A stretch of 64,000 bases of DNA from Pseudonocardia sp. C8. GTDB taxonomy: Bacteria; Actinomycetota; Actinomycetes; Mycobacteriales; Pseudonocardiaceae. The position numbers and the translations under genes were made by a program. The notes beneath the pieces were generated by a model. That model was not told where the DNA came from and did no database searches. It saw nothing but the letters and a program-made list of their open reading frames with translations. The stretch lies in contig NZ_JACMTR010000002.1 in NCBI RefSeq assembly GCF_014267175.1, positions 5,295,501-5,359,500 of the forward strand, written 5' to 3'. Position 1 is the first letter of the stretch. Each line of letters starts with the position of its first letter. Of this stretch, positions 9,182 to 64,000 are shown piece by piece.

Positions 9182-9879
9182 CCGCCGTCGACGTGCAGGC
9201 CCTGACCGCGGGCTACGACCGCAGCACCGTCCTCGACGGTGTCGACCTGTCGATCTCCACCGGCGGTGCGCTCGGCGTGCTCGGGCGCAACGGCGTCGGC
9301 AAGTCGACGCTGGTCATGACGCTGATGGGCCTGGTCACGCCCACGTCGGGCCGGGTGCTGCTCGACGACCGCGACGTCACCGGGCTGCGGCCGGACCTGA
9401 TCGCCCGCGCGGGCGTGGGGCTCGTCCCGCAGGGTCGGCGGATCTGGGCACCGCTGACCGTCGCCGAGACCCTCGCGCTCGCCACCCGCGGCCACGGTCG
9501 GCGCTGGACCGTCGACGCCGTCCTCGACCTCCTCCCCCGGCTCCGCGAGCGCCGGGGGCAGCCCGCCGGGCAGCTCTCCGGCGGGGAGCAGCAGATGCTG
9601 GCGATCGCGCGGGCGCTGCTCACCGACCCGGCCGTGCTGCTGCTCGACGAGCCGTCGGAGGGTCTCGCACCGGCGATCGTCGACCAGATCGCGGCGCTGC
9701 TGCAGACGTTGCGCGGCGAGGGCGTGACGCTGCTGCTCGTCGAGCAGGACCTGCACCTCGCGTTCGCCGTGTGCGACGAGATCGCGGTGATGGCGAAGGG
9801 CCGGATCGTCCACCGGTGCACCACACCGGAGTTCCGGGCCGACCGGGCGACCGCGCACCGGCTGCTCGGGGTGGCCTGA
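9178..9879 (+). CDS. livF: ABC importer ATPase, LivF type
   Basis: A 233-aa ABC ATPase with Walker A GRNGVGKST near residues 36-44, signature LSGGEQQML near 134, Walker B VLLLDEPSEGLAP near 155 and H-loop VEQDLHLAF. The VPQGRRIWAPLTVAE segment after the Q-loop is typical of LivF. It is the last gene of the importer operon. The ATG overlaps the livG stop by 4 nt. Its own TGA is continuous with the first unit of a tandem repeat (9878-9982). Confidence 0.92.
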   Translation: MTAVDVQALTAGYDRSTVLDGVDLSISTGGALGVLGRNGVGKSTLVMTLMGLVTPTSGRVLLDDRDVTGLRPDLIARAGVGLVPQGRRIWAPLTVAETLALATRGHGRRWTVDAVLDLLPRLRERRGQPAGQLSGGEQQMLAIARALLTDPAVLLLDEPSEGLAPAIVDQIAALLQTLRGEGVTLLLVEQDLHLAFAVCDEIAVMAKGRIVHRCTTPEFRADRATAHRLLGVA

Positions 9880-9982
9880 GGCCCGGCGGTCGAGGGCCGA
9901 AGCAGCAGCACCGAGGCCCGGCGGTCGAGAGCCGAAGCAGCGGCACCGAGGCCCGGCGGTCGAGGGCCGAAGCAGCGGCACC
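9878..9982 (+). repeat. Three tandem 35-bp repeats after livF
   Basis: The units 9878-9912, 9913-9947 and 9948-9982 are nearly identical, each starting GAGGCCCGGCGGTCGAGGGC and continuing CGAAGCAGCGGCACC. The last two bases of the livF stop codon are the first two bases of unit 1. Two inverted copies with the same 35-bp spacing lie at 15385-15446. The units contain short GGCCC/GGGCC dyads and may form hairpins in RNA. Confidence 0.92.
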
Positions 9983-9991
9983 GACTCCAGG

Positions 9992-39047: not shown

Positions 39048-40613
39048 ATGCTCCGCGCAGCTCGCCTCCGCATCGAGCGCGACGGCGATGCGACATCCTC
39101 CGCCGGACGGTCCCGCCCCGCCCTGCTGGCCGCTGCGCTGCTCGTCCTGGCCGTAGGGCTCTGGTCGTGCTGGTCGGTGACGGTCGACGACGCGTACATC
39201 ACTTACCGCTACAGCGAGAACCTCGCGCGCGGATTCGGGCCGACGTGGAACCCGGGTGCGGACCCGGTCGAGGGGTACACGAACTTCCTCTGGATGCTCT
39301 GGCACGTGCCCTGGGTGTGGGCCGGGGCCCCGCTTCCGGTGGTGTCGAAGGTGACCGCTGCGCTGTGTGCGAGCGCGATCGTCTGGATTCTCGTCACCGA
39401 GCCGGGAACGCGGTCCGGCGCGGTCACCGCCACCGGGGCATTCGTCGTCTTCCTGCCCACCTGGGTGCACATCGACGGCGGGCTCGAAACGGCGCCGTTC
39501 GCGCTCGTGGTGCTGCGGTCGGTCGTCGTCGTCGCTCGGGTCCTCCGTGATCGCTGTGCGGTCGTCCGGCCCTGGGAACTGCCCGCGCTGCTCCTCGTGG
39601 CGGGGATGCTGCGCCCCGACGGGATCCTGGCGGTCGGGCCGCCGCTGGTGGTGTGGGCGGTCCTCCGGCGCCGCGACCGCCGGACGTGGCTGTGGCTCGC
39701 CGCCGCAGCTGCCGCCGGCGGGCTCTATCTCGGGTGGCGATGGGCCTACTTCGGGTACCCGCTGCCGAACACCTTCTACGTCAAGGTCGGTGTCGAGGCG
39801 GCAACCGATCTCCGCTGGATCAGCACCACGGTGGCGCTCCTGCTGCCGCTGCTGCTGCTCGCCACCGCCGGTCTGGCGCGGCGGACGACGGCGCCTCGCG
39901 CCGCGCTCATCGTCGCGACCGGCGTCGCCCTGTACGCGATCCCGGCGCTGACTGCTCCGGCGATGGACTACCTGTCCCGGTTCGCCTGGCACGGGCTGCC
40001 CCTTCTGTGCCTGGGAGCCGCGTGGACCCTGGACGTGCTGGACCGGCGACTGCTGGCCGCGGGTACCGGCGTCGTCGTCGTGGGCTGGACGAGCGTCGCC
40101 GGGTTCCTCCAGCCGGACGGGCCGACGATGGTGAACTACGGCGACGACCTGCGCCGGGCACATGTCGCGATCGGACTCGCACTGGCCGACACCGGCCTCC
40201 CCACGGACCGGCGCACGGTCGCCGTCACCGACGCGGGCGCGATCCCCTACTTCTCGGGCTGGACGACGACCGACTACATCGGGCTCAACGACGAGCGGAT
40301 CGCCCACGGAGCGAGCCCGACCGACGTGCTGCTCGCCGACGACCCCACCGTCCTGGTCGTCACCAGCGCGTCACCCGAGCCGCCGCCCGCGTCCTGGCGG
40401 ACCGACCTGCCGCGGGTGCGTGGCGACCGGGAGCTGGTGGGCGTGGCGCAGATGCGGCCCGCGTACTTCCAGCTCGTGTTCGCGAAGCCGGACGTCGCCG
40501 GTGAGGTACGGGCGGCGCTGGACCGGCGGCTGGCCGAGGGGCGCGAGGTCAGCGACGCGCGGCTCGACCAGGGGTACTCGCGGTGGCTGGAGCGGTTGCT
40601 CGGCCGAGGGTGA
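39048..40613 (+). CDS. GT-C membrane glycosyltransferase with a DDAYI motif
   Basis: A 521-aa protein with about ten hydrophobic segments. Right after the first helix comes VTVDDAYITYRYSENLARG, then DPVEGYTNFLWML. This is the hallmark of GT-C enzymes using polyprenyl-phosphate sugars (Asp-Asp in the first outer loop). AftB has a comparable DDG...NTST layout, but the resemblance is not close enough for me to name this AftB. A soluble C-terminal part (from about 375) contains AIPYFSGWTTTDYIGLND. It is likely to act on AG or a related lipid-linked glycan. An AAGACT hexamer lies 6 nt before the ATG. Confidence 0.75.
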   Translation: MLRAARLRIERDGDATSSAGRSRPALLAAALLVLAVGLWSCWSVTVDDAYITYRYSENLARGFGPTWNPGADPVEGYTNFLWMLWHVPWVWAGAPLPVVSKVTAALCASAIVWILVTEPGTRSGAVTATGAFVVFLPTWVHIDGGLETAPFALVVLRSVVVVARVLRDRCAVVRPWELPALLLVAGMLRPDGILAVGPPLVVWAVLRRRDRRTWLWLAAAAAAGGLYLGWRWAYFGYPLPNTFYVKVGVEAATDLRWISTTVALLLPLLLLATAGLARRTTAPRAALIVATGVALYAIPALTAPAMDYLSRFAWHGLPLLCLGAAWTLDVLDRRLLAAGTGVVVVGWTSVAGFLQPDGPTMVNYGDDLRRAHVAIGLALADTGLPTDRRTVAVTDAGAIPYFSGWTTTDYIGLNDERIAHGASPTDVLLADDPTVLVVTSASPEPPPASWRTDLPRVRGDRELVGVAQMRPAYFQLVFAKPDVAGEVRAALDRRLAEGREVSDARLDQGYSRWLERLLGRG

Positions 40614-40618
40614 CCAGC

Positions 40619-41051
40619 GGGCGGATCGGCTCACCTCCCGACCCCGGCAGGCACGATTCCGCCCCGGACCGGGCGAGCTCGTGCAGATCGACTCACGGCT
40701 CGGCGGCGAGGTGCACGATTCCGCCCCACGGAGGACGGTCGCGCGCAGATCACCACGCACCGCGGCATCGAGAAGCGCGTTCGCGCCCCCTGCGGCGCCA
40801 CGACGTGCAGATCGACACGCACCGCGGACGTCAGGTGCACGCTTCCGCCCCACACGGGGCGACTCCGTACTGATCGACGCGGAGCGCGCTGTCGAGGCGC
40901 GCGATCTCGTCCCGCCGAGGGCGGCACCGCGCTGATCGACCCGCGGGCCGCGGCGCACAGCGGGAGACATCGGCATGTCGAGGCGCGCGATCTCGCCCGG
41001 TTCCGGGCACCGTCGTGCCGATCGACCGGTGGTGCGACGCAGGCCGAGGGG
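40619..41051 (+). repeat. Degenerate 62-bp tandem repeat array
   Basis: GATC anchor points occur at 40624, 40686, 40748, 40810, 40872 and 40934, exactly 62 bp apart, then at 41020 (86 bp, a 24-bp insertion in unit 5). Each unit opens GATCGAC, carries a middle block like GGTGCACGATTCCGCCCC and ends near CGACTCCGTGCA. Units have diverged, with no identical copies. Since 62 is not a multiple of 3 and units share no frame, they do not encode a repeat protein. It fills the whole 438-bp space between the 3' ends of two convergent genes. A second array of the family is at 63902-64000. Confidence 0.88.
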
Positions 41052-63901: not shown

Positions 63902-64000
63902 CCGGTCGATCAACGCGAATCGGCCGCACCCGGGGCAGAAACGTGCGCACCGCCCACAGGCCAGATGTCGATCAGCACGAACCGGCCACACACGAGGCGA
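63902..64000 (-). repeat. Second 62-bp tandem array, inverted, cut by the window end
   Basis: GATC anchors at 63908 and 63970 are exactly 62 bp apart. Read on the minus strand the unit opens GATCGACA, has CACGTTTCTGCCCC (compare CACGATTCCGCCCC in the 40.6-kb array) and ends near GATTCGCGTT. Thus it is the same family in reverse orientation. The array continues beyond the window. The part from 63771 to 63901 shows nothing I can name. Confidence 0.75.

What the first reader, a model, noticed from the sequence alone, without database searches (positions are those of the whole stretch)
40619..41051. A degenerate 62-bp tandem array fills a convergent intergenic gap
GATC anchors recur at exactly 62-bp steps (40624, 40686, 40748, 40810, 40872, 40934), with one 86-bp unit. 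Each unit keeps GATCGAC at the start and a GTGCACGATTCCGCCCC-like block about 25 nt later, yet no two units are identical. The period is not a multiple of 3, so this is not a protein repeat. The divergence with strict spacing suggests selection on length or on paired sites (for example protein binding or a folded RNA) rather than a young VNTR. The closest analogue I know is the mycobacterial MIRU family, but the sequence is not one I recognise.
Basis: seen in the sequence. Interest (0 to 1): 0.72.

Follow-up and report, generated by a model that had tools for sequence, protein, structure and literature searches.

The report
Phased palindrome arrays between bacterial genes
A Pseudonocardia chromosome carries dozens of intergenic arrays built from one 48-base inverted repeat repeated every 62 bases; related species carry the same element as single copies, so it looks like an actinobacterial counterpart of the E. 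coli REP/BIME repeats.

Summary
The 62-bp array is real: lag-62 identity is 0.547, against 0.308 for matched random sequence. It fills the whole gap between two convergent stop codons (40613/41052). It is one of at least 72 such loci (427 units; 4 loci hold one copy) in this Pseudonocardia genome, none of them inside a called gene. Each unit is a 48-bp inverted repeat plus a 14-bp spacer, so symmetry axes fall every 31 bp (about three helical turns).

In five related species every cluster found is a single copy (41 of 41), a strong hairpin with compensatory changes, most often between convergent genes (22 of 41). P. ammonioxydans also has arrays. Some orthologous loci hold one copy in one species and 5-10 in another. 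The window's own site is empty in three relatives.

Inside arrays the hairpin pairing has decayed (no covariation), but core bases and the 62-bp step remain although spacers are nearly randomised. That favours a row of DNA-protein sites over a folded RNA, a young VNTR or a decayed gene. The best analogue is E. coli REP/BIME-2. No Y1 transposase was found in this genome and there is no GTAG motif, so it is not filed as REP. The protein is unknown; function is inferred.

The parts
40614..41051 (.). convergent intergenic gap, filled by the array
   Evidence: stop codons at 40613 (+) and 41052 (-); in three relatives the orthologous stops lie 0 bp (P. parietis) or 6 bp apart (P. ammonioxydans) or overlap (ICBG1293), from sequence and stop position
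40618..41026 (+). array body: 62-bp units in phase, one 86-bp step before the last
   Evidence: PWM unit starts 40618, 40680, 40742, 40804, 40866, 40952 (converted to 1-based)
40644..40691 (+). 48-bp dyad element 1
   Evidence: 48-bp PWM scan, score 46
40706..40753 (+). 48-bp dyad element 2
   Evidence: 48-bp PWM scan, score 38
40768..40815 (+). 48-bp dyad element 3
   Evidence: 48-bp PWM scan, score 39
40830..40877 (+). 48-bp dyad element 4
   Evidence: 48-bp PWM scan, score 43
40892..40939 (+). 48-bp dyad element 5
   Evidence: 48-bp PWM scan, score 49
40978..41025 (+). 48-bp dyad element 6, after the 86-bp step
   Evidence: 48-bp PWM scan, score 40
39048..40613 (+). left flanking gene, up to 521 aa, membrane-protein-like by eye (start codon uncertain: 39048 or 39177)
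   Evidence: ORF list, codon-model; orthologues in L048, L049, L053
41052..41939 (-). right flanking gene, 295 aa, glycosyltransferase-like by eye (no family search was run on it)
   Evidence: ORF list; 45 related loci, best 91% identity in P. ammonioxydans
63906..64000 (-). start of a second array of the same family, cut by the window edge (9 units in L209)

Best explanation
The array is a row of helically phased DNA sites for a sequence-specific, probably dimeric, DNA-binding protein. It was made by tandem amplification of a 48-bp inverted-repeat element that spreads at the 3' ends of genes, above all between convergent genes. As single copies (ancestral state, inferred) the element is a strong hairpin and probably acts as a two-way 3'-end signal (terminator or RNA end). 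In this genome and in P. ammonioxydans it has been multiplied in steps of 62 bp. The hairpin has then decayed, while the core bases of each half and the 31/62-bp register were kept. The most likely effect is a protein or topoisomerase platform that stops or relieves colliding convergent transcription, in the way E. coli BIME-2 arrays bind gyrase. Shown: anatomy, dispersal, single and array states at orthologous loci, loss of pairing, retention of core and spacing. Inferred: direction of change, protein binding, biological effect.
For: Dispersed family, at least 72 clusters and 427 units in G000; none of 71 G000 clusters overlaps a called gene by more than 10 bp, none of 42 stretches by more than 1 bp. 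Modal step 62 bp in 57 of 58 G000 and 16 of 17 P. ammonioxydans arrays with at least 4 units. Spacer sequence is array-specific (identity 0.57 within, 0.37 between arrays) yet its length is nearly universal. Lag-62 identity at core positions 0.82 against 0.56 elsewhere, without requiring the neighbour to be a scored unit; 29 of 226 unit intervals have a net length change against an estimated 0.72 substitutions per non-core site. No covariation inside units. Five related species: 41 of 41 clusters solitary, hairpin z -5.6 on both strands against about -2 for array units; 44 cells with double changes against 30.3 in shuffles, 0 of 500. Same locus, different copy number: 1/7/1 (L201/L214/L217), 10/1 (L045/L216), 5/1 (L227/L245), 6/2 (L231/L244). 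Convergent gaps: 41 of 71 element-bearing gaps in relatives against 32 of 360 others (odds ratio 14); G000 25 of 71 against 46 of 255 (p 0.003); divergent gaps depleted in both.
Against: No binding protein was identified. Array units keep a weak residual hairpin (z about -2), so a structural role is not excluded. In G000 39 of 71 element-bearing gaps are co-directional and 7 divergent. In relatives 10 of 80 clusters overlap a called ORF by more than 10 bp, six lying wholly inside; these six ORFs hold real domains, four look like over-extended or run-together calls, two (L149, L166) are undecided, so 'intergenic' is not proved for all. Two of the five covariation measures for solitary copies do not clearly exceed shuffles (pairs with a double change 8 against 7.9; pair types 27 against 24.4, 62 of 500). 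Between species spacers (0.58-0.72) are more alike than variable dyad positions (0.46-0.57), and flanks are 0.68-0.86. Core positions come from PWM-chosen units, which inflates their conservation. Orthologues are counted separately. Unit polarity is shared in 337 of 355 (G000) and 88 of 102 (P. ammonioxydans) neighbours but only 2 of 9 in P. parietis. No clear link of polarity to replication. The direction single-to-array rests on parsimony; the tree did not resolve the species.
Confidence: 0.5

Rival explanations
1. Selfish satellite: a non-autonomous palindromic mobile element (REP/MITE-like) whose core is kept because an amplifying or transposing enzyme must recognise it; the host gains nothing.
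For: Limited spread: 8 of 62 Pseudonocardia genomes have hits at E below 1e-8; none of 45 other genera in 249 Pseudonocardiaceae genomes or of 137 other genera in 394 genomes of the class has one at E 1e-6. Occupied site in the window against an empty site in three relatives. Large copy-number differences at one locus.
Against: No Y1 transposase match in G000. No match of one solitary element in 72,556 plasmid records; one exact core pattern absent from viral contigs. Solitary copies are kept at orthologous sites with some compensatory changes, and divergent (promoter) gaps are depleted, which suggests a tolerated or useful place.
Confidence: 0.27
2. Folded-RNA or intrinsic-terminator array: the transcript folds into serial hairpins.
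For: Strong, partly covarying hairpins in solitary copies, several at convergent stop codons.
Against: In arrays pairing is not above neighbouring units or shuffles; whole window array fold z -1.1 / -2.9; no T tract after solitary copies (1.49 T in 12 nt against 1.51 expected, 82 edges).
Confidence: 0.13
3. Neutral tandem repeat that has decayed, with spacing kept only because indels are rare.
For: Within-array spacer identity does not fall with unit distance, as after one burst of amplification.
Against: Position-specific conservation shared across the 40 arrays analysed; few length changes for the substitution load (the usual indel-to-substitution ratio is recalled, not measured here); the same 62-bp step at unrelated loci and in two species.
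Confidence: 0.1

Closest known systems
REP / BIME-2 of E. coli and other gammaproteobacteria
   Same: short palindromes, solitary or in regularly spaced arrays of alternating orientation, mostly extragenic. Passages of PMC2817692 and PMC8266576: BIME-2 strongly binds DNA gyrase, REPs facilitate Rho-dependent termination, E. coli REP stems carry a conserved mismatch. Here too one block of three stem positions is often mismatched.
   Different: no GTAG tetranucleotide (1 of 82 edges), unrelated sequence, nearly fixed 31-bp axis spacing, no Y1 transposase match in this genome; PMC6006769 (passages) reports that Actinobacteridae carry only subclass 1.1 (IS200-type) of the Y1 family
Mycobacterial MIRU minisatellites
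   Same: actinobacterial intergenic tandem repeats (family features recalled)
   Different: here alternating inverted halves, strongly diverged units, 3'-end preference, solitary palindromic relatives
Actinobacterial hairpin terminators without a U tract (recalled)
   Same: many solitary copies are long G+C-rich hairpins close to convergent stop codons
   Different: a shared arm sequence across loci, and arrays in which the pairing is lost

Membership tests
REP (repetitive extragenic palindrome) | 20-50 nt imperfect palindrome | tested here: met
   48-bp dyad
REP (repetitive extragenic palindrome) | extragenic | tested here: met
   G000: 0 of 71 clusters overlap a called gene by more than 10 bp; relatives: 10 of 80 overlap a called ORF, 6 wholly (two of these undecided)
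REP (repetitive extragenic palindrome) | conserved GTAG-type tetranucleotide at the palindrome | tested here: not met
   GTAG at 1 of 82 edges of solitary copies; no such column in A1, A2
REP (repetitive extragenic palindrome) | a cognate Y1 transposase (RAYT/TnpAREP) in the genome | tested here: not met
   PF01797: 0 matches in G000, controls ring in 5 of 14 including E. coli; PF01797 fits TnpAREP only partly (passage); the other species were not searched
BIME | regularly spaced palindromic units in alternating orientation | tested here: met
   inverted halves every 31 bp, units every 62 bp
BIME-2 | binds DNA gyrase | not testable with these tools
   needs cleavage mapping or ChIP
MIRU | direct head-to-tail repeats without internal dyad (recalled) | tested here: not met
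   the unit consensus has two symmetry axes
Structured RNA array | covariation of paired positions | tested here: not met
   arrays; partly met for solitary relatives
CRISPR | near-identical repeats separated by unique spacers | tested here: not met
   the 105 aligned units are all distinct; spacers are more alike within an array than between arrays

The most novel reading that the evidence does not exclude
A two-state regulatory DNA element: one hairpin copy works through folded nucleic acid, and after amplification by a mechanism with a fixed 62-bp (six-turn) step it becomes a protein-coated, helically phased barrier between genes. The same locus would thus switch its mode of action by copy number, in a group reported to lack the REP-type transposases.
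Probability: 0.25. Interest if true: 0.78.

Novelty: new variant of a known kind. Interest (0 to 1): 0.57.

Why it matters
Bacterial satellites are rarely caught in transition. Here orthologous loci show one, a few and many copies of the same element (and, at the window locus, none) in related, partly named species, so spread and amplification of a BIME-like array can be followed. The nearly constant 62-bp step with array-specific spacers makes a clear, cheap prediction (a phased binding protein), and the preference for convergent gaps makes its role in transcription collision testable.

Tried and rejected
Rejected: decayed coding gene (period 62, the other copies in this genome are intergenic repeats; the array was not searched as protein against databases); Rfam family (only a chance mir-595 match, E 0.89); phage or plasmid origin (no matches: one exact pattern in viral contigs, one solitary element against plasmids; the phage record collection was not searched); REP transposase (own genome only); terminus-targeted or replication-oriented placement (clusters spread over the chromosome, no clear strand bias). 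A first covariation count used a structure string shifted by two columns and was redone. The first unit HMM drifted onto both strands because the unit is a palindrome and was replaced by an orientation-fixed PWM. The tree from flanking genes was not usable. On checking I withdrew an earlier idea that the gene overlaps in relatives are merely spurious low-score ORFs: six elements lie inside ORF calls with real Pfam domains. Papers: nine searches; searches returned none, one and five papers, none about such arrays by title and abstract; some searches gave seven, one and 26 papers (REP literature, an M. tuberculosis genotyping paper, general hits; ten of the 26 listed). By these searches I saw no report of this family. 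Papers were seen as search listings with the start of abstracts, and as passages for PMC12306157, PMC2817692, PMC8266576 and PMC6006769.

Full report
WHAT IS THERE. The region 40619-41051 shows lag-62 identity of 0.547 against 0.308 +/- 0.025 (maximum 0.404) in 2000 first-order Markov sequences. GATC anchors stand at the reported places, with a last step of 86 bp. The array fills the whole 438-bp gap between the stop codons of two convergent genes.

A GENOME-WIDE FAMILY. The array sequence finds 107 matches in its own genome, and a sequence-only model of 105 units from 39 loci finds 280. With the loci fetched, the genome has at least 72 clusters with 427 units, 4 of them single; the listing was cut, so this is a minimum. 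The genome is a Pseudonocardia, judged by its neighbours: the nearest relatives of the flanking gene are Pseudonocardia. None of 42 array stretches overlaps a called gene by more than 1 bp, none of 71 clusters by more than 10 bp. Gene calls are my own codon-model calls.

ANATOMY. Oriented consensus: CGTGCTGATCGAC-n13-TCGAGnCGCACGnTccCGCCCc-n4-gGGGCGnnAn. It is one 48-bp inverted repeat plus a 14-bp spacer; two kinds of symmetry axis alternate every 31 bp. One arm carries GATCAGC or GATCTGC, the other mostly a GAG-type block, so arrays have a polarity. Neighbouring units share it in 337 of 355 cases in G000 and 88 of 102 in P. ammonioxydans, as expected of tandem duplication, but only in 2 of 9 in P. 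parietis. Spacing is 62 bp in 179 of 209 intervals and 291 of 355 in the larger set. The modal step is 62 in 57 of 58 G000 arrays and 16 of 17 P. ammonioxydans arrays with at least 4 units.

NOT A FOLDED RNA IN THE ARRAYS. At variable stem positions, partners within a unit pair no better than partners 62 bp away. On 105 units, standard pairs are 73.4% against 74.2% in shuffles, and cells with double changes 73 against 80.6. The mean fold z-score of array units is about -2 on either strand (40 of 399 G000 units and 40 of 103 P. ammonioxydans units sampled), that of the whole window array -1.1 and -2.9.

CONSTRAINT. Within an array spacers are about 0.57 identical, between arrays 0.37; core positions 0.88 for neighbours and 0.84 between arrays. 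In the window array spacers are down to 0.42 but the core is 0.81. Comparing each unit with whatever lies 62 bp further inside the array, scored or not, gives 0.82 for core and 0.56 for other positions (window 0.78 and 0.45), with 29 net length changes in 226 unit intervals. In the four best-covered orthologous array pairs of two species core identity is 0.85-0.92, variable dyad positions 0.46-0.57, spacers 0.58-0.72 and flanks 0.68-0.86; the labels come from the PWM, which favours the core.

RELATIVES. Of 62 Pseudonocardia genomes (own included) all have some hit at E 0.01, but 8 have hits below 1e-8: G000, G041, G050, G056, G026, G037, G002, G052; the best of the rest is 4e-5. Outside the genus no searched genome matched at E 1e-6: 1 of 46 genera in 249 family genomes and 1 of 138 genera in 394 class genomes, the one being its own; strict filters, 21 and 13 candidates scored per genome. 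G050 is P. parietis, G056 Pseudonocardia sp. ICBG1293 and G041 P. ammonioxydans, because their hit places coincide with those of named records. In G002, G026, G037, G052 and G056 the loci listed were fetched, and 41 of 41 clusters scoring at least 30 are solitary. Of these 41, 22 lie in convergent, 11 in co-directional and 2 in divergent gaps and 6 could not be assigned; some overlap the stop codons. Many are found at the same orthologous loci in several species. As a group (39 distinct) they are strong hairpins, z -5.6. On 37 solitary copies (35 of these species, 2 of P. parietis) paired cells are 85.3% against 80.8% in shuffles, cells with double changes 44 against 30.3, covariation score 0.181 against 0.133, each 0 of 500; but pairs with a double change (8 against 7.9) and pair types (27 against 24.4) are not clearly raised. 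Some double changes lie between orthologues, up to 5 kept pairs between L170 and L249. Related rows inflate such counts.

SINGLE VERSUS ARRAY AT ONE LOCUS. L201 (G000) 1, L217 (P. parietis) 1, L214 (P. ammonioxydans) 7; L245 1 and L227 5; L244 2 and L231 6; L216 1 and L045 10; L034 5, L226 5 and L240 2; L152, L169, L174 1 each and L236 2 with a step of 72. At L216 only the right flank adjoins the element as in L045; on the left P. parietis has about 1.2 kb more. The P. parietis copy at L217 aligns with the gene-proximal unit of array L214 and has a partial second half next to it. At the window locus the stops of the two genes are 0 bp apart in P. parietis, 6 bp in P. ammonioxydans and overlap in ICBG1293, so this array is a local gain or was lost elsewhere.

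PLACE. In relatives 41 of 71 element-bearing gaps are convergent against 32 of 360 other gaps of the same loci (odds ratio 14, p 8e-19); in G000 25 of 71 against 46 of 255 (p 0.003); divergent gaps are depleted in both. Seven of the 80 clusters of relatives could not be given a gap, and 10 overlap a called ORF by more than 10 bp: four by 11-44 bp at an edge, six wholly. Of the six, two lie over 100 residues ahead of an ScpB domain (probably an over-long start), two at the junction of two oxidoreductases read as one ORF, and two (L149, L166) inside an ORF with a ferredoxin-like reductase domain, undecided. Orthologues are not independent, so the p-values are too small. The arrays are spread over the chromosome without a clear polarity to replication.

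MECHANISM. Shown: a solitary, hairpin-forming element that favours 3' ends; tandem states of it at the same loci; loss of pairing with retention of core bases and of a 31/62-bp register in arrays. Inferred: a protein reads the halves on double-stranded DNA, and the register keeps the sites on one face of the helix. BIME-2 of E. coli, which binds gyrase (passage of PMC2817692), is the model for how it may work. The element is not filed as a REP: no GTAG motif and no Y1 transposase match in this genome, although PF01797 fits REP transposases only partly (passage of PMC6006769).

LIMITS. No protein, transcript or binding data; direction of change by parsimony; gene calls, PWM thresholds (16-18 per 48-mer, 30 for a cluster) and the choice of up to three units per array are mine.

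Noticed in passing
L182 2975-3764 (G000 C2 about 5487074-5487863): A 12-unit array lies between dnaA and an ORF that looks like dnaN (by eye), the usual oriC place of actinobacteria (recalled), near several DnaA-box-like 9-mers.
   Followed up: partly
window 63906-64000 and beyond (L209): Second array of the same family at the window edge, 9 units in the fetched locus.
   Followed up: yes
L160, L161, L162 (Pseudonocardia sp. ICBG1293): The same solitary element with nearly identical flanks occurs on three contigs, near their ends; an assembly duplication or a real repeat.
   Followed up: no
L175 651-5000 (G037) and L243 615-5210 (P. parietis): One open frame spans two FMN/FAD oxidoreductase copies with the element near their junction: a fused gene with the palindrome in its linker, or two genes read as one.
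   Followed up: partly
window 9878-9984: A 3-copy 35-bp tandem repeat, 95% matches.
   Followed up: no
G000 C1 49142-49465 and C2 1540412-1540735: Two DnaA-family (PF00308) hits with equal scores and equal open-frame length on the small contig C1 and on the chromosome; perhaps a shared mobile element.
   Followed up: no
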